The position numbers and the translations under genes are program-made. Positions 3,578 through 21,331 of a DNA stretch of 38,111 bases are shown piece by piece. The stretch covers positions 1-38,111 of the IMG/VR virus record IMGVR_UViG_3300027896_000111. One strand, given 5' to 3'. The notes below the pieces were generated by a model. That model had not been told where the DNA came from. It worked only from the letters and a program-made list of their open reading frames with translations, and searched no databases. The number at the start of each line of letters is the position of its first letter. Position 1 is the stretch's first letter. The DNA is from a virus.

Positions 3578-4243
3578 ATGAATGATTTCTGGAAGAGTAC
3601 GACTCCCGGAAAGGGAATGGTTTATCCCAGAAATTTTGATGAAGGGCTTGTTCGTACAATGGGTGGAGTTTTAACGACCTTTAATGGCGTTCAAACTTAT
3701 GTAATACCGAATATTCCATGTGCAGGTCAGGTTCCGATTTATGTTTCCCCCCCCGACCCACTGATAGTTAGCGAAGTGATCCCACGAATAATTATTAACC
3801 CGTCTTCTATGGATGACGGTGGTACGAGAATCCATCCCGGTCATGTTCAATGGCAGGACAGGCATGACACATCACCGGAGATAGACCATTCAGGTTTTTA
3901 TCAAGAGATGGATGAGAGTTTACAAGCGTGGCCCTATGATATATCTTATGAAATAGAGATAAGTGGTTCTTTCAAAAAAATGGTGCAAGGAATCTGGAAG
4001 TGGATCATGGCGAATTCCACGATAAAGCCAAAGGGCTATATAACGGTGTGGGATGATGCTGGTGACCCAAGAGGGTATGATGTGATCTTTGATTCGATAA
4101 CTGAGTCTGATGCGATTGACGATATTTATTTACGTTTTCCGGGAATGACTGTAACATTAAGAGTGATGGGCGAAATTGACATTATGCCGATTGAAACATC
4201 ACGTCTTGTTGAACAGACTAATTTGACTGTTGAGAAGAAGTAG
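3578..4243 (+). CDS. Hypothetical virion protein upstream of tail sheath
   Basis: This 221-residue protein starts at ATG 3578, just after the previous TAA, and ends in TAG. The first 50 residues are Pro/Gly-rich and extended (FNGVQTYVIPNIP). The second half is beta-rich, including an IWKWIMANS segment near residue 140. A run of eight C at 3747-3754 lies in the coding frame, which stays open through it. The protein directly precedes the sheath, so tail terminator or neck roles fit, but I recognise no family. Confidence 0.5.
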   Translation: MNDFWKSTTPGKGMVYPRNFDEGLVRTMGGVLTTFNGVQTYVIPNIPCAGQVPIYVSPPDPLIVSEVIPRIIINPSSMDDGGTRIHPGHVQWQDRHDTSPEIDHSGFYQEMDESLQAWPYDISYEIEISGSFKKMVQGIWKWIMANSTIKPKGYITVWDDAGDPRGYDVIFDSITESDAIDDIYLRFPGMTVTLRVMGEIDIMPIETSRLVEQTNLTVEKK

Positions 4244-6314: not shown

Positions 6315-6321
6315 TTATGGC
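6302..6321 (+). repeat. Direct repeat of translation start region, left copy
   Basis: The 20 bases spanning the binding site and start of the nuclease gene match 16 of 20 positions at 7449-7468, which spans the binding site and start of the tail tube gene. Shared bases are AAAC-GGAGGCA and ATGGC. Part of the match reflects the general ribosome binding consensus, but AAAC, GCA and GC lie outside it. Confidence 0.45.
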
Positions 6322-7450
6322 TGATGTAAGATTTGATAGTGTGATCTTTGAAAAATTTAGGAAAATGTACATTGACGAAAACATGAGTGTTTATATGATT
6401 GCTAATATTTTCAATAGAAGTAGATTTTATGTTGAAAGAATGCTGAAGAGCGGCGATATTATTTTGAGAGGTTCAAAAACCTTTAAGTTTGATAAAGATT
6501 TTTTTGAAAAAATAAGAATTATGTATATTGATGAAGGTAAGAGCACTTATGAAATAGCAAGAGAATTAGATAGATCATTTTCTTATATAGTAAAGATTTT
6601 GAAAATTGGTGGAGTTAAAATTAGAAATAAAAGTGAGAGAGCTATTTTTTCTAATGGAAATGTTGGTAGAGATAGTTCTTCGGAAATTATCGAATTATAT
6701 AAAAATGGAAAGTCTATAAAAGATATTTCCCAGGGTATAGATGGAATATCAAAGACTGGTGTTAGGCGTGTTCTTATTAGGGAAGGAATTAAGTTAAGAG
6801 AAAAGAAGAAGCCAAAATGTATTCCAGAAAACAAGATTCAAGAGGCAATTAGTTTGTATGATGCCGGTATGACGTATAGGCAGTTGGGAGAAAAGTATGA
6901 TGTGTCTGGAACTGCTATACATGATTTGTTGGTTTTGAATGGGGTTAAGTCAAGGCCGGGAAGTTGGGCAAAGATAAAAGATGAGGATGACAAGAAAGAG
7001 ATAATTGAGGAATACAAGAGGGGTGTTAGTAAATCGTATCTTGCGCTTAAATTTGAATGTAGCGGAGATGCTATTAGCAAAGTTCTAAGAGATGCAGGTG
7101 TAAAAATACGAAATTTTGACGAGGCTGTTGGAATTAAGTTCATTGATATAAAAGGTAGAGAGTTTTGGCTTAAGTCAACTTGGGAAGTTAAGTTTGCCCA
7201 ATGGCTTGATAGCAAGAATTATGAGTGGGGTTACGAGGTAGAGAAGTTTAAGTTGTATTATGGAATTGGATATACACCGGATTTTTGGATATATAGGAAT
7301 GGTGTTTTAAATAAATTGATAGATGTGAAGGGTTGGTTTAGGTCAAGTTCGCAAAAGAGAGTTAAAATGTTTAGAAGTAAGTATAAGAAATTAAGACTCT
7401 TTGTTTTTGACAAATTACATTTTGAAAAATGTGGAATTTTATTAAAGTAA
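6317..7450 (+). CDS. Homing-type endonuclease, five HTH repeats plus PD-(D/E)XK nuclease
   Basis: This 377-residue protein has two parts. Residues about 8-265 contain roughly five helix-turn-helix-like repeats, with motifs such as 'YxIAxxFxRSxxYVxxxL' and 'YRQLGEKYDVSGTAIHDLL', probably reading an extended DNA site. Residues about 275-377 form a small nuclease with a PD-(D/E)XK pattern: E290 in STWEVKF, D322 in YTPDFW, and D336-V-K338 in LIDVKGW. It interrupts the normal sheath-tube adjacency and has its own regulated binding site, as expected of a free-standing homing endonuclease. A Vsr/EDxHD-like or restriction-type nuclease is possible. Lys-rich and AT-richer codon use than its neighbours suggests separate origin. 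Confidence 0.75.
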   Translation: MADVRFDSVIFEKFRKMYIDENMSVYMIANIFNRSRFYVERMLKSGDIILRGSKTFKFDKDFFEKIRIMYIDEGKSTYEIARELDRSFSYIVKILKIGGVKIRNKSERAIFSNGNVGRDSSSEIIELYKNGKSIKDISQGIDGISKTGVRRVLIREGIKLREKKKPKCIPENKIQEAISLYDAGMTYRQLGEKYDVSGTAIHDLLVLNGVKSRPGSWAKIKDEDDKKEIIEEYKRGVSKSYLALKFECSGDAISKVLRDAGVKIRNFDEAVGIKFIDIKGREFWLKSTWEVKFAQWLDSKNYEWGYEVEKFKLYYGIGYTPDFWIYRNGVLNKLIDVKGWFRSSSQKRVKMFRSKYKKLRLFVFDKLHFEKCGILLK

Positions 7451-14756: not shown

Positions 14757-16021
14757 AGTCTGATTTTAATAATCCGGTAATGTATGTGAGTTTTAATGGA
14801 GAGGACTTTCAGGCGGTTTTTGGAGGCCCGAAGCCTAATGGTTTTATTAATTCACTGACTGTTTCGCTTAAATTAGGTGGTGTTGGAGAATTCGATATTA
14901 ATTGTGTGATGCCGTTTAATGATGGATTGGATTTGCTTGAAAAGTTTATAACTGGTTCTCAGAAGTTAGATTTTACGACTGATAAAATAGCTGTTAAGAT
15001 TGGGTATCTTCCTAATTATCAGACACCAATGATTATCGGATTGATAACGTCTTTTCCAGAATTTGTTTTTGACAATCAGTGTACTATTTCGTTTAGATGC
15101 ACGTCATTGGCGAGTGTTTTATACAATGATTCTGTTCCTTTGACGTTAGAAAACGCGAGTTATCTTGATGTTTTAAGAAAATTATGCCGTGATAATAATA
15201 TTGTATTAAAAACCTATGAATCATTAAGTATGATGACGAATGATTTTAGAAATGCAAATGACAGTAATGGCTTGAAGATGTATATGACAAGTGGGGTTGA
15301 AAGTAAGTTGGATTTGTTTAAGTTTGAATATATATCAAAGAATGGAAATAGCTGGAATTTAATAAAAGAGATTTTTGATAAGTGTGGGATTGTTTTTACG
15401 GTGTCTGGTACTTCTGTATTTGCATTTACGATATTTGAATCTTCTGATAATGTTCCTGTTTTGACATTTAAGTGGAATTGTAATTTTGATGTTTCAAAAA
15501 GAATAATTCCAATAGATTCTATTGAAATGAATTTGTTGCCTACAACTTTTATTGCTGCGAATACTGTTGTGAGGGATACTGGTTTTGATGCAACTGTCGC
15601 TGGTTTTGGAACGGTAATAAATAAGAATGATATGAACTCTGTTACGAAGGCAGGTGCGAATGTATCTGTTGATGCAGAAGTAGAAAAAAAGAAAGACATG
15701 GTAACTATGTCTGGAGAAGGTGGTGTAGATCAGGCAAAGTTACTTTCTGAGAGTGTGACAAGCGGGAACAAGGTAGCGTCTTTATCGTGTACGATAAATT
15801 CAATTGGGGTTCCAGATGTTCTTCCCGGTGATAGTGTTGTTGTTGATCTTGGGAGAGAGAAGTTAATGTGGACATATAGGGTGATGGAGGTAAAGCATAA
15901 TTGGGATGGAAAGTATAGGAGTACCTTTGAATTGACATATTGTGGTAATGTTTCAGATGGTGTTAATAAAAATAAGGCGAAAACTACTGACACAATTACT
16001 ATTGGTGGGGATATAGGATAA
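14753..16021 (+). CDS. Baseplate hub protein, gp27/gpD-like
   Basis: This 422-residue protein starts at ATG 14753, overlapping the preceding stop (ATGA). The N-terminal region (SLTVSLKLGGVGEFDINCVMP, then an IAVKIGYLP barrel strand and MIIGLITSFPEF) matches the first barrel of hub proteins. A middle part holds YLDVLRKLCRDNNI, as in gpD-like hubs. The end (VLPGDSVVVDLG...WTYRVMEVKHNWDGKYRSTFEL) is typical of the last hub barrel. A trimer of this protein would bridge the hexameric tube and the trimeric spike encoded next. Confidence 0.82.
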   Translation: MKSDFNNPVMYVSFNGEDFQAVFGGPKPNGFINSLTVSLKLGGVGEFDINCVMPFNDGLDLLEKFITGSQKLDFTTDKIAVKIGYLPNYQTPMIIGLITSFPEFVFDNQCTISFRCTSLASVLYNDSVPLTLENASYLDVLRKLCRDNNIVLKTYESLSMMTNDFRNANDSNGLKMYMTSGVESKLDLFKFEYISKNGNSWNLIKEIFDKCGIVFTVSGTSVFAFTIFESSDNVPVLTFKWNCNFDVSKRIIPIDSIEMNLLPTTFIAANTVVRDTGFDATVAGFGTVINKNDMNSVTKAGANVSVDAEVEKKKDMVTMSGEGGVDQAKLLSESVTSGNKVASLSCTINSIGVPDVLPGDSVVVDLGREKLMWTYRVMEVKHNWDGKYRSTFELTYCGNVSDGVNKNKAKTTDTITIGGDIG

Positions 16022-16725
16022 TGTCTGTAATATCTGATTTGATTAATAATGTGAGAAGGCTTGGGATTGAATTTGTATTTGGAAGATATTATGGTATTTA
16101 TCCTGCTGTTGTAACTGACAATAAAGACCCAAAGGGAATGGGTAGAGTGCAGGTAAAGAGTTCTATTTTTGGGCATGTTAATCCTGTGAGAAATTGGATT
16201 GCACCGTTGTTTTCTGATATGATGTATGATCCACCTGAGATAGATTCGGATGTGTGGATTCAATTCATTTCTGGGAATATAAATTCGCCGGTATATGTAG
16301 GAACAAGAAAGATTCCCGGAGACGCAAGATTTAGTGAGTTTCAAGAGAGTAATACAGAGCCTAAGAAGCGTGGTTTGAAGACTAAATACGGTCATAAGAT
16401 AATGTTCTTTGATAGTGATGATGAGCCAAAGATAGAGGTCACTACAAAGAACGGAGAAAAGATTATATTAAGTGATAAGAGCGGTTCTGAGAGCATAACG
16501 ATAGAGGACGAGGTGAATGGTAATAGGCTTGTTATGGATAGTTCTGGGGTTAAGGTGAATGGGTTATTTCTTGTGACAGAGAAGTACCTTGATTTCATGA
16601 ATAAGCATATAGCCGATTTTGGTCTTGGGAACATGGGCAGTCCTGTACCATTAAACCCTGCTGGGACGGCACCTGATTTTACAACAGGGTACACAACGAA
16701 GAAAGATTTTAAAACGAACATATAA
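16021..16725 (+). CDS. Baseplate spike protein, gp5/gpV-like
   Basis: This 234-residue protein is coupled to the hub gene by a one-base overlap (TAATG). Residues about 23-100 form an OB fold (YPAVVTDNKDPKGMGRVQVK...WIAPLF...DVWIQFISG...PVYVGT), as in gp5, gpV and VgrG. A repetitive beta-rich segment follows (KIEVTTKNGEKIILSDKSG, SITIEDEVNGNRLVMDSSG), as in the triangular needle that pierces the outer envelope. No lysozyme domain as in T4 gp5 is present. The tail end (PLNPAGTAPDFTTG) may bind a PAAR-like tip. The gene directly precedes the IscB element. Confidence 0.85.
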   Translation: MSVISDLINNVRRLGIEFVFGRYYGIYPAVVTDNKDPKGMGRVQVKSSIFGHVNPVRNWIAPLFSDMMYDPPEIDSDVWIQFISGNINSPVYVGTRKIPGDARFSEFQESNTEPKKRGLKTKYGHKIMFFDSDDEPKIEVTTKNGEKIILSDKSGSESITIEDEVNGNRLVMDSSGVKVNGLFLVTEKYLDFMNKHIADFGLGNMGSPVPLNPAGTAPDFTTGYTTKKDFKTNI

Positions 16726-16726
16726 C

Positions 16727-16739
16727 CCTACAATGACAC
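16727..16739 (+). repeat. Left arm of imperfect inverted repeat around iscB
   Basis: CCTACAATGACAC pairs with the right arm GTATCGTTGTAGG at 18216-18228 (11 of 13, the two mismatches being G/A differences that leave wobble pairs in RNA). It lies just after the spike gene stop. It could be an element end, or half of an ancestral intergenic hairpin. Confidence 0.5.
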
Positions 16740-16969
16740 TTTAAAAGGTGAAGTTGTGGGAGTCTAGAGGGCTAAAAGGTAATACTTTTATGCAGAAGTT
16801 TAAAGTAAAGTTAAAGAACGTACCAATGGATACTCCACTAGTCCATTGCTCTACAAATTTATCTTTAAACAGAGAAGAAATTCTCAGTGAGATAGATAAC
16901 CTGAAAAATGGTAAACGGGCTTTAAACAACCTCGAAGTGGATCAACTCCAGCATAAGGGAGGACAGGGC
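16737..16969 (+). ncRNA. Candidate omega RNA (HEARO-like) of IscB
   Basis: IscB genes are preceded by a structured RNA (HEARO, or omega RNA) that carries the guide at its 5' end. This roughly 230-base region sits in that place and is rich in local hairpins: TAAAAG/CTTTTA (16773-16790), CAATGGA/TCCATTG (16824-16848, seven perfect pairs), GAGAA-GAAA-TTCTC with a GNRA-type tetraloop (16872-16885), and TGGA/TCCA (16938-16950). It can be translated in frame with iscB from ATG 16748, but that peptide has no family resemblance. The exact RNA ends and guide are not determined; the guide should come from sequence near the spike stop. Confidence 0.72.
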
Positions 16970-18166
16970 TTGCGAGTTCCTGTTAAGGCTTATGTACTTA
17001 ACAAAAGAGGAAAACCATTAATGCCTTGCTCTGCGAGAAAAGCAAGGATGTTGATTAAGAAAGGAGAAGCAAGGGCAGTAAAAAATTATCCATTTGTAAT
17101 ACAGTTGACAAGAGCTACAGGTGAACAGGTTCAAGATTGTTCATTAGGTGTAGACAGTGGCTTTAAGAATGTAGGTTTTTCAGTGATAACAGAGAAAAAA
17201 GAGATAATAGCAGGAACACTTGTTTTAGATCAAAGGACATCTGAAAGATTGACAGAAAAGAGAATGTATCGAAGGCATAGAAGAAATAGGCTATGGTATC
17301 GTAAACCAAGATTCAATAATAGAAAAATAAATCAAGGTTGGCTACCACCTTCAACGCAGAGAAGATTTGATACACATTTAACTCTAATTAATAGATTAAA
17401 GAGTCTTTTACCAATAAAGAATGTTATAATAGAAGTAGGTAATTTTGATATACAGAAAATAGAGAATCCAGATATAACAGGTATTCAGTATCAACAGGGG
17501 TCATTGTTTGAATATCAGAATATGAGAAGTTTTTTAATGTCAAGAGAACATGGTAAGTGTCAGTTGTGTGGTAAGGAATTTTCAAGGGGTAATGGTTCTC
17601 ATATACATCATATTATATCAAGAAAAGATGGTGGTACTAATAGGGAAAAGAATTTAGCTTTGTTGCATGAAAAATGTCATAAGAAGTTGCATAAAAACAA
17701 GTTGTATGGTTTATTAAAAAAGAATAATGTTTACAAAGACGCAACATTTATGAATATAATAAGGAATAAATTTAGAGAGATTTTGGAAGATTGTAAGATA
17801 GTTTATGGAAATGAGACTTTTGTAAAAAGGAATATTTTAAGATTGGAAAAAATGCATTATAATGATGCTTTTGTAGTAGCAGGAGGTACAAGTCAAGAGA
17901 AGGTAGTTCCTGTTGATGTTGAACAGAAAAGAAGAAACAATCGTGAATTACAAAAAAACAGAAAAGGTTTTATTCCCTCAATTAGAAGAAAAAGGTATAA
18001 AATTCAGAATAGGGATTTTATTTGGATAAAAGGGAAAAGATTTTTGTGCGGTGGTATTCAATGCAAAGGAGCTTCTGTTTATGTTTTTGACAATAAAAAA
18101 GTTAAAAGTTTGATTTCATCGAAGAAAGTAGAAAGAATATATCATACTGGAAGTTTAGTGTGGTAG
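16970..18166 (+). CDS. iscB: IscB RNA-guided endonuclease
   Basis: This 398-residue protein is taken from TTG 16970, preceded by GGGAGGA at six-base spacing; the frame is open back to ATG 16748 but that part is assigned to RNA. Order: PLMP domain (GKPLMPCSARKARMLI, about 15-29); RuvC-I with D62 in LGVDSGFKNVG; Arg-rich bridge helix about 98-118; RuvC-II with E155 in NVIIEVGNF; HNH with C197/C200, H213-H214 and C236 in the zinc/active site; RuvC-III with H296 and D299 in MHYNDAFVVAGG; and a C-terminal domain for target-adjacent motif reading. All catalytic positions are intact, so both DNA strands could be cut. IscB is the ancestor-like relative of Cas9. It lies alone, without TnpA. Confidence 0.93.
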   Translation: MRVPVKAYVLNKRGKPLMPCSARKARMLIKKGEARAVKNYPFVIQLTRATGEQVQDCSLGVDSGFKNVGFSVITEKKEIIAGTLVLDQRTSERLTEKRMYRRHRRNRLWYRKPRFNNRKINQGWLPPSTQRRFDTHLTLINRLKSLLPIKNVIIEVGNFDIQKIENPDITGIQYQQGSLFEYQNMRSFLMSREHGKCQLCGKEFSRGNGSHIHHIISRKDGGTNREKNLALLHEKCHKKLHKNKLYGLLKKNNVYKDATFMNIIRNKFREILEDCKIVYGNETFVKRNILRLEKMHYNDAFVVAGGTSQEKVVPVDVEQKRRNNRELQKNRKGFIPSIRRKRYKIQNRDFIWIKGKRFLCGGIQCKGASVYVFDNKKVKSLISSKKVERIYHTGSLVW

Positions 18167-18215
18167 ATTGTGTATGTTATTGATTTGTAATTAAGTAGGT
18201 ATTTATTAATACTAA

Positions 18216-18228
18216 GTATCGTTGTAGG
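18216..18228 (+). repeat. Right arm of imperfect inverted repeat around iscB
   Basis: This is the partner of 16727-16739. Just upstream is a separate small hairpin, GTATT-TATT-AATAC (18199-18212), in the AT-rich tail between iscB and the next gene. Either could mark the 3' end of the element. Confidence 0.45.
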
Positions 18229-18242
18229 AATAGAGGTTTGAT

Positions 18243-18617
18243 ATGGGAATGTCTGCTGGTGATGTGAATGCTACTTCTGGTATGTCAAATACTATTTATG
18301 TGGCTATTGAGAGGGAAATAATAGACAAATTGCATCCAGACACGCCTTCTTCTGTTAAAGATGATTTGAAAACACAATTGAAAAAGTTGTCTTTTTGTAT
18401 AGCAGAGGGAGTGATAGGTCATATTAAGTCGAATATGGAAATTAAAGGAATTAAAAGTTCGCTTGATTCTCCAGGTTTAAATGGTATTTTTGTAACAGGT
18501 GTTCCGGTTCCACAAGATGGTGGAGCAGCATTGAAAACTGCTTGGATTGCAGCAACTACTGGAGGAACAAAAGACAAGTCTACGCAAACAAATGATGGAA
18601 CTGGACATGTGGAGTAA
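18243..18617 (+). CDS. Hypothetical baseplate-region protein
   Basis: This 124-residue protein starts at ATG 18243 after AGAGG; a second ATG six bases on is also possible. The N-terminal half is helical. The second half holds GIFVTGVPVPQDGGAALKTAWIAATT, a motif that seems typical of small phage baseplate-region proteins, though I cannot name the family. The C-terminal 20 residues are low-complexity (Thr/Gly/Asp). It would have followed the spike gene directly before the IscB insertion, so a role near the baseplate hub is likely. Confidence 0.55.
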   Translation: MGMSAGDVNATSGMSNTIYVAIEREIIDKLHPDTPSSVKDDLKTQLKKLSFCIAEGVIGHIKSNMEIKGIKSSLDSPGLNGIFVTGVPVPQDGGAALKTAWIAATTGGTKDKSTQTNDGTGHVE

Positions 18618-20092: not shown

Positions 20093-21238
20093 ATGTTAAT
20101 ACAAAAAGCATTCAAGACAGAATTAAATCCTAATAACAAGCAACGTACTTTTCTTGAGAAAAGCATAGGGGTAGCACGTTTTGCATGGAATTGGGGTTTA
20201 GCTCAAAGAATTAGTTTTTATGAAAAAGAGAAGAGGTCTTTAAGTGCTATAGATCAACATAAGATATTGTGTTCAATGAAAAAAGAAGAGTTTCCGTGGA
20301 TGTATGATATTAGTAAATTAGCACCACAAGAAGCATTGAGAGATTTGGATTCTGCTTTTAAAAATTTTTTTAATAAGAAAAAATGTTTTCCTAAATTTAA
20401 GAAAAAGCATGGGAATAAACAGTCTTTCAGAATGACTGGTGATAAATGTTATATTTCTGAATCGACTATAAAATTGCCTAAAATTGGAGAGATAAGGTTA
20501 AAAGAGAAGAATTATATACCAGTCGAAGGGGTTAAATATAATTCGGTAACAGTTTCAAAGATTGCGGATAGATGGTTTGTTTCAGTTCAATGCGAAGTAA
20601 ATATTTTAGAACCATCCAAACCAGAAACAGTAATTGGTGTTGATGTTGGAATAAAAACATTAGCTACATGCTCTAATGGACAAGTTTTTGAGAACAACAA
20701 ATATTTAAAGAAGTCACAAAAGCATTTGTCTTTACTTCAGAGAAATTTAAGTAGAAAAGAAAAGGGTAGTAGAAATAGGTTAAAAGCGGTTAAGAAAGTA
20801 CAGAAAATTCATTATAGAATATCATGTCAGAGAAAAGATTCAATTCACAAAATGACAAGTATTTTGGCGAAAACCAAACCAAGGTATATTGTATTAGAAG
20901 ATTTGAATATTTTTGGTATGATGAAAAGCCACAAACTTGCTGGTTCTGTATGTGATGCGTCTTTTGGCGAAATAAGAAGACAATCAGAATACAAGACTAA
21001 ATGGTATGGTGGAGAGGTAATTGATGCAGATAGATTCTTCCCTTCAAGTAAATTGTGTTGTGTTTGTGGTAGACTGAAAGATGACTTGATGCTTGAGGAT
21101 AGAATTTACAGATGCGAGTGTGGAAATGAAATTGATAGAGACAAAAATGCGTCAATTAATTTAGAGAATTATGGTTTGAGTACCCTTAGTTCGCGGGGAA
21201 TTAAAGCCTGTGGAGAAAGTGTAAGACTTTATGAGTGA
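20093..21238 (+). CDS. tnpB: TnpB RNA-guided endonuclease
   Basis: This 381-residue protein starts at ATG 20093. It has the full TnpB layout: N-terminal helix-turn-helix/wedge region (KAFKTELNPNNKQRTFLEK, then ARFAWNWGLA); RuvC-I D184 in IGVDVGIKTLAT; RuvC-II E269 in YIVLEDLNI; zinc ribbon with Cys at 322/323/325 and 341/343; and RuvC-III Asp in IDRDKNASINL (348-350). The length is typical. TnpB is guided by an RNA from the 3' end of its own element and cuts DNA next to a short adjacent motif; it is the Cas12 ancestor type. All catalytic residues are present, so it is probably active. It shares its operon with baseplate genes and has only a weak binding site. Confidence 0.93.
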   Translation: MLIQKAFKTELNPNNKQRTFLEKSIGVARFAWNWGLAQRISFYEKEKRSLSAIDQHKILCSMKKEEFPWMYDISKLAPQEALRDLDSAFKNFFNKKKCFPKFKKKHGNKQSFRMTGDKCYISESTIKLPKIGEIRLKEKNYIPVEGVKYNSVTVSKIADRWFVSVQCEVNILEPSKPETVIGVDVGIKTLATCSNGQVFENNKYLKKSQKHLSLLQRNLSRKEKGSRNRLKAVKKVQKIHYRISCQRKDSIHKMTSILAKTKPRYIVLEDLNIFGMMKSHKLAGSVCDASFGEIRRQSEYKTKWYGGEVIDADRFFPSSKLCCVCGRLKDDLMLEDRIYRCECGNEIDRDKNASINLENYGLSTLSSRGIKACGESVRLYE

Positions 21239-21310
21239 AAACTTAAAAAGCTGTTTTGATGAAGCAGGAAATAAACACAGCATCTACCCTATGGTAGAGA
21301 TTGATAAGTT
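21130..21310 (+). ncRNA. Candidate omega RNA (reRNA) of TnpB
   Basis: In TnpB elements the guide RNA scaffold overlaps the end of the gene and runs past its stop. Here the 3' gene end and the 91 bases after it keep typical marks: GGGGAATTAAAGCCTGTGGA (21196-21215), the post-stop sequence GATGAAGCAGGAA (21258-21270), and a terminal hairpin TCTACC-CTAT-GGTAGA (21283-21298). The guide should begin just after the scaffold, within about 21300-21330, i.e. the leader of the gp25-like gene. The 5' end is approximate. Confidence 0.7.
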
Positions 21311-21319
21311 TTATAGAAC

Positions 21320-21331
21320 GGAAGTATAAAT
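21320..21331 (+). repeat. Right copy of 12-base direct repeat around tnpB
   Basis: This is the partner of 20062-20073 (11 of 12). It contains the GGAAG that serves as ribosome binding site for ATG 21330, so the gp25-like gene keeps a start signal despite the insertion. Confidence 0.5.

What the first reader, a model, noticed from the sequence alone, without database searches (positions are those of the whole stretch)
16727..18228. Apparently complete IscB-omega RNA unit inside a phage tail operon
Seen: a 398-residue IscB with PLMP, all RuvC residues (D62, E155, H296, D299) and an intact HNH, preceded by about 230 bases with several stable hairpins. Known: IscB is RNA-guided, with the guide at the 5' end of an RNA encoded directly upstream. 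Inferred: the phage carries an active RNA-guided nuclease used in homing-like spread, or co-opted against rival phages. Location between the spike gene and a baseplate gene of a structural cluster is unusual for a family best known from IS-like bacterial loci.
Basis: partly seen in the sequence, partly recalled or inferred. Interest (0 to 1): 0.88.

Follow-up and report, generated by a model that had tools for sequence, protein, structure and literature searches.

The report
Phage IscB whose guide RNA is coding
A phage tail-gene cluster carries a complete RNA-guided DNA-cutting enzyme (IscB) with its guide RNA, probably a selfish homing element, and in this mostly viral family the guide-RNA scaffold is also read in frame as the start of the enzyme's own gene, so that one stretch of RNA is both message and guide.

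Summary
The protein is a full IscB (NF040563 307.8 bits, cutoff 175; PLMP, RuvC, HNH and C-terminal domain intact; the fold search returns IscB-omega RNA structures first). The RNA upstream is a real omega RNA: HEARO at 16760-16946, E=1e-12, below Rfam's cutoff because its 5' stem differs. Across 30 relatives 28 of 39 pairs show compensatory changes. IscB in phages is not rare (79 IMG/VR loci in one search) and was reported in 2022. Homing-like spread is the best reading: guide = 3' end of the upstream baseplate gene, ends definable, putative TAM NTARA. No empty site was found for this phage, and nothing supports use against rival phages. The surprise is elsewhere: the IscB frame starts at an AUG inside the omega RNA (16790) and runs through the scaffold. 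In 31 relatives this leader is always 3n long and stop-free, while the other two frames always contain stops; its length changed at least 16 times without a frame change. Third codon positions are not freer, so the frame is selected but the peptide is not. Translation and guide use of one transcript should exclude each other (inferred). New variant of a known kind.

The parts
16706..16726 (+). putative guide of the omega RNA; lies over the last codons and stop of the upstream baseplate gene, outside the element
   Evidence: immediately 5' of the scaffold's first stem; in relative L105 the HEARO match starts at the exact base where homology to an IscB-less allele ends; no second copy in the window
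16727..16760 (+). 5' stem P1 of the omega RNA (16727-16734 with 16753-16760) enclosing a small hairpin (16737-16741 with 16746-16750); short version shared with L055, L056, L074
   Evidence: fold z=-4.4; alignment A2; aligned as a deletion by Rfam HEARO
16760..16946 (+). omega RNA (HEARO) scaffold
   Evidence: RF02033 E=9.9e-13, model 1-211; RNAalifold on 30 relatives, 28 of 39 pairs with compensatory changes
16790..18166 (+). iscB reading frame from the conserved AUG inside the omega RNA; residues 1-60 are encoded by scaffold and linker
   Evidence: 31 of 31 clade members: AUG in frame, no stop; other frames 31/31 with stops
16970..18166 (+). IscB protein proper (PLMP, RuvC I-III with HNH insert, C-terminal TAM-interacting region); in-frame TTG at 16970 is an alternative start
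18220..18229 (+). right end CGTTGTAGGA, inverted repeat of the left end 16726-16735
   Evidence: score reached by 13 of 300 shuffles here, 0 and 1 of 300 in relatives L056 and L074
18230..18234 (+). putative TAM ATAGA in the right flank (NTARA: ATAGA here, CTAAA in L056, TTAAA in L074; ATAAA in the empty allele of L105's site)
   Evidence: reading of the right ends and empty allele; inference
16021..16725 (+). upstream gene, baseplate/spike OB-domain protein, stop codon directly before the element
   Evidence: PF04717 E=7e-11
18243..18617 (+). downstream gene of unassigned function, its AGAGG ribosome site just outside the element

Best explanation
A free-standing IscB-omega RNA homing element (about 16726-18229) sits between the stop codon of a baseplate gene and the ribosome site of the next gene. 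One transcript carries, 5' to 3', the guide (the end of the baseplate gene), the omega RNA scaffold and the IscB message. IscB loaded with the omega RNA would cut the uninterrupted site (guide sequence followed by an NTARA motif) in co-infecting phage genomes lacking the element, and repair from the intact copy would spread it; the resident copy is safe because the element separates guide match and TAM. Translation of IscB starts at an AUG in the nexus of the scaffold, and ribosomes must pass through the scaffold to reach the IscB domains. So a given transcript is either translated or folded and bound as guide RNA, and IscB bound to its own scaffold should cover its start codon and limit its own synthesis. 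Shown: protein family and intact residues, omega RNA by covariation, in-frame stop-free leader kept through at least 16 length changes with no peptide-level constraint, clean ends. Inferred: cleavage, homing, TAM, mutual exclusion and autoregulation.
For: IscB identity. Omega RNA. Frame: all 31 clade members have the ATG in frame at 156-192 nt and no stop, other frames always stops; leader length changes 16 times by parsimony with zero changes of the remainder mod 3, whereas the stretch just upstream of the AUG changes 23 times with remainders 8/9/14; codon-position differences 0.324/0.366/0.305 in the leader against 0.361/0.281/0.544 in the body; AF2 leaves residues 1-64 disordered. The AUG's G and the next C pair with the G-box of the nexus. 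Several relatives (e.g. L079) have no start codon near the IscB domain. Homing anatomy: stop codon/ribosome site flank the element; relatives sit next to SSB, primase, terminase, baseplate genes; L105 left end equals the point where homology to an IscB-less phage stops, and the HEARO match starts there. IS200/605 TnpB acting as a gene drive on IS-less plasmids is published (PMC11870625).
Against: No empty allele or protospacer for this phage in IMG/VR, so guide and TAM are deduced. The TAM is read from three loci. W keeps a TTG at 16970 with a good ribosome site, so some IscB could be made without crossing the scaffold. Three members of the clade (L080, L081, L083) have stops in the frame. No expression data.
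Confidence: 0.7

Rival explanations
1. Ordinary IscB homing element; the open frame is a passive by-product of RNA conservation, and IscB is translated only from the TTG at 16970 or a GTG nearby.
For: W and about nine clade members have TTG at that place; the leader peptide is not conserved as a peptide.
Against: RNA conservation does not explain 16 length changes all of 3n when the adjacent stretch of the same RNA shows no such rule, nor why loci without a nearby start keep the frame, nor why loci with the ancestral motif CUACGUU instead of AUG (L080, L083) have stops.
Confidence: 0.12
2. Co-opted weapon against rival phages: the guide targets other viruses and the unit is kept for the phage's benefit (superinfection exclusion).
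For: Cutting IscB-less relatives is itself a form of exclusion; phages with IscB are frequent.
Against: The guide is the flank of the insertion, as in a mobile element; no viral protospacer beyond chance; insertion sites differ in every relative.
Confidence: 0.1
3. Remnant of an IS200/IS605 insertion moved by TnpA in trans, with IscB only preventing loss of the element.
For: Relatives such as L049 and L057 have IS605-like end hairpins, and C. difficile phage relatives carry TnpA pieces.
Against: W's own subgroup has lost the long 5' hairpin and has terminal inverted repeats instead; no TnpA in the window among the ORFs examined.
Confidence: 0.12

Closest known systems
IscB / HEARO with omega RNA (OgeuIscB, TbaIscB, KraIscB; Rfam RF02033)
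   Same: Domains, residues, RNA architecture, guide at the 5' end, single locus; best fold matches are 8csz, 9liq, 9k30
   Different: Short alternative 5' stem with terminal inverted repeats; iscB start codon lies inside the scaffold and the frame crosses it; no TnpA seen beside it
TnpB, whose omega RNA is cut from its own mRNA (Nety et al. 2023, PMC10278001)
   Same: Guide RNA and message overlap in one transcript; a cis-regulatory inhibition by the mRNA was reported there
   Different: There the RNA comes from the 3' end of the message and carries the guide downstream; here the scaffold is at the 5' end and contains the start codon
Viral and prophage HEARO nucleases (Goltsman et al. 2022, PMC9755519) and PHROG phrog_119
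   Same: IscB in phage genomes, active in E. coli when tested
   Different: An overlap of the reading frame with the RNA is not mentioned in the passages read; they describe the RNA as the 5' untranslated region
Group I intron/HNH homing endonucleases of phages
   Same: Insertion beside conserved phage genes, presumed spread by cutting uninserted alleles
   Different: Recognition by a guide RNA copied from the flank, not by the protein alone

Membership tests
IscB (guided_IscB, NF040563) | PLMP domain, split RuvC with HNH insert, arginine-rich bridge, score above cutoff | tested here: met
   307.8 bits vs 175; PF14239 and PF01844; residues in A1
IscB (guided_IscB, NF040563) | IscB fold including C-terminal TAM-interacting region | tested here: met
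   AF2 model pLDDT 68.8 overall, body mostly 70-92; Foldseek best hits IscB-omega RNA complexes, E=5e-26
IscB (guided_IscB, NF040563) | RNA-guided DNA cleavage | not testable with these tools
   needs biochemistry
HEARO omega RNA (RF02033) | match at Rfam gathering score | tested here: not met
   63.9 bits vs 83; relatives including L056 and L074 of the same subgroup pass
HEARO omega RNA (RF02033) | consensus secondary structure with covariation | tested here: met
   E=9.9e-13 over the full model; 28 of 39 pairs with compensatory changes in 30 sequences including W
RNA-guided homing element | guide equals flank of the insertion; empty alleles carry guide + TAM | tested here: inconclusive
   Met on the left side for the distant relative L105; no empty allele found for W
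IS200/IS605 element | TnpA and subterminal end hairpins | tested here: not met
   No TnpA among the window's ORFs examined; right-end hairpin weak, ends are inverted repeats instead

The most novel reading that the evidence does not exclude
In this mostly viral IscB lineage the omega RNA is also coding sequence: the start codon sits in the scaffold nexus, so translation and RNP assembly compete for each transcript, and IscB shuts off its own synthesis by binding its own message. The RNA is under double constraint (structure and frame) without peptide constraint.
Probability: 0.4. Interest if true: 0.75.

Novelty: new variant of a known kind. Interest (0 to 1): 0.62.

Why it matters
How an IscB locus splits one transcript between message and guide RNA is, as far as the papers read here show, not worked out. 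This family gives a natural experiment: a start codon in the scaffold, a frame kept open through the RNA, and closely related loci with the ancestral arrangement. It makes autoregulation of a Cas9 ancestor testable with point mutations. Anyone using such loci as editors should note that trimming the leader or the omega RNA alters both parts.

Tried and rejected
Rfam at gathering score: no hit in the window. Empty-site searches: upstream baseplate gene against phage records and IMG/VR, downstream gene, guide 18-mer, the upstream genes of L056 and L054: none gave an IscB-less allele. The 18-mer hits L128/L129 are one unrelated virus, rejected as chance. Leader as a functional peptide: rejected because third codon positions are not more variable than the others and the model is disordered there. 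P1 as in Rfam (GUCAAC/GUUGAC): rejected for W, which uses CCUACAAU/GUUGUGGG. A subgroup-specific search for the W-type 5' stem found only one further contig, already known. Literature searches for an omega RNA overlapping the IscB frame found nothing in the open-access library; the original HEARO paper (2009) and the 2021 IscB paper were not found in it, so prior mention there cannot be excluded.

Full report
WHAT IS THERE. The window is a 38,111-base linear virus record with a contractile-tail gene cluster: sheath, baseplate hub and wedge genes. Between a baseplate/spike OB-domain gene (16021-16725, PF04717) and an unassigned gene at 18243 lies iscB. The protein scores 307.8 bits against NCBIfam guided_IscB (cutoff 175), with RRXRR and HNH domains. 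PLMP, RuvC and HNH residues agree with 11 relatives. AlphaFold2 on 22 family members gives an IscB body (mostly pLDDT 70-92) preceded by 64 disordered residues, and the best PDB fold matches are IscB-omega RNA complexes (E=5e-26; by sequence E=6e-39).

OMEGA RNA. Rfam HEARO matches 16760-16946 over the full model at E=9.9e-13, 63.9 bits, under the gathering score of 83, which is why the default scan is empty. The missing bits are the 5' stem. In typical relatives the scaffold starts GTCAACTACC-hairpin. In W and three others (L055, L056, L074, the last two from one 141-kb virus) it is replaced by a shorter stem, in W CCUACAAU/GUUGUGGG around a five-pair hairpin. W 16727-16950 folds 4.4 s.d. below dinucleotide shuffles. 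On 30 family members RNAalifold gives 39 pairs, 28 with changes on both sides that keep the pair, and 12 of 14 relatives searched pass Rfam's own threshold.

ENDS, GUIDE, TAM. The element can be read as 16726-18229. The left end follows the stop codon of the baseplate gene, and the right end CGTTGTAGGA (18220-18229) is an inverted repeat of the left end. The repeat is strong in L056 and L074 (0 and 1 of 300 shuffles reach it), moderate in W (13 of 300), not significant in L055 and absent in loci with the ordinary 5' stem. Beyond the repeat W, L056 and L074 continue ATAGA, CTAAA, TTAAA (NTARA). In the C. difficile phage relative L105 (45% identical IscB) homology to an IscB-less allele in phage pCD1602_4 ends at base 3754; the HEARO match starts at 3755, and the empty allele continues ATAAA. 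So the guide is the left flank and ATAAA is a likely TAM; by analogy W's guide is 16706-16726, over the last codons of the baseplate gene. From memory, ATAAA-like TAMs are known for IscB; that was not checked here. No empty allele for W exists in the collections searched.

RELATIVES. One profile search of IMG/VR gave 79 loci and one of GTDB genomes 28. The tree (87 sequences) puts W in an all-viral clade of 11 (support 98/99) inside a clade of 37 with 33 viral members. Neighbours of the insertions include a gp32-like SSB, DNA primase, terminase small subunit, baseplate hub and virion proteins. W itself looks mosaic: residues 1-300 are mostly 71-86% identical to L049, with L050 similar except for the first 60 residues, but residues 331-397 only 40-46%. 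There W is closer (58-65%) to L055, L056 and L074, the loci with which it shares the 5' stem and right end. The C-terminal region, thought to read the TAM, thus seems to travel with the element's ends.

THE READING FRAME RUNS THROUGH THE OMEGA RNA. Every one of 31 distinct clade members, chosen for having ATGCAG/A at 150-200 nt without regard to frame, has this AUG in frame with IscB (156-192 nt upstream) and no stop between; all 31 have stops in both other frames. On a tree of these loci the leader length changes at least 16 times, always by multiples of three. The stretch between the G-box and the AUG, part of the same RNA but outside the frame, changes 23 times with remainders 8/9/14. A rough chance of 16 length changes all being 3n is (1/3)^16. 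Differences by codon position are 0.324/0.366/0.305 in the leader and 0.361/0.281/0.544 in the IscB body: the frame is kept open, but the peptide is not selected, and the RNA structure explains what is conserved. Several loci have no usable start near the IscB domain (for example L079). Outside the clade 43 of 86 IscBs scored have an open frame of at least 150 nt in total and 43 do not. Exceptions within the clade are L080, L081 and L083, of which L080 and L083 have the HEARO motif CUACGUU in place of the AUG.

MECHANISM. Shown: family, RNA, frame constraint. Inferred: the start codon's G and the following C pair with the G-box in the scaffold nexus, so a folded or IscB-bound scaffold should hide the start, and a translating ribosome should unfold the scaffold. 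One transcript cannot serve both uses at once; IscB binding its own message would limit its synthesis. For TnpB, processing of its own mRNA into guide RNA and a cis-inhibitory mRNA region are published (PMC10278001), and TnpB acts as a gene drive for its insertion sequence on plasmids (PMC11870625). IscB homing in phages is the analogous reading here.

WHAT IS KNOWN. Viral and prophage HEARO/IscB nucleases were described in 2022, with the RNA called the 5' untranslated region (PMC9755519). HEARO RNA was noted in Silviavirus phages in 2025 (PMC13346280). The presence of IscB in a phage is therefore ordinary. An in-frame coding omega RNA was not found in the open-access library, but the 2009 HEARO and 2021 IscB papers could not be read here.

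Noticed in passing
window 20093-21238 (+): A second RNA-guided nuclease gene, TnpB (NF040570 297 bits, cutoff 100), 1.9 kb downstream in the same tail operon; RuvC D/E/D look intact by eye; a possible 3' omega RNA and guide lie in 21239-21329.
   Followed up: no
window 6317-7450 (+): A third nuclease-like gene directly after the tail sheath gene: HTH modules with HNH-like and Holliday-junction-resolvase-like profile matches, perhaps a homing endonuclease. Three mobile nucleases would then share one tail cluster.
   Followed up: partly
window 18100-18166 and L055, L056, L074: W's C-terminal 67 residues, its omega RNA 5' stem and its right end all resemble L055/L056/L074 while the rest resembles L049/L050: a mosaic in which the TAM-reading part and the element ends appear to be exchanged together.
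   Followed up: partly
L056 and L074 (IMGVR_UViG_3300032070_000613): One 141-kb virus carries two related IscB elements with different guides, one among replication genes and one among tail/virion genes.
   Followed up: partly
L055 (26-kb viral contig): IscB lies after a DNA primase gene; the helicase-like genes on both sides seem to contain intein-like insertions, so several selfish elements share one replication module.
   Followed up: no
L070 2478-3488: A Volactin gene (PF25216 E=5e-70) lies two genes upstream of an IscB element in a 180-kb viral contig.
   Followed up: no
L105 5935-6053: Fusobacteriales-1 RNA (RF02920, 96.6 bits) in a C. difficile phage contig near an IscB element.
   Followed up: no
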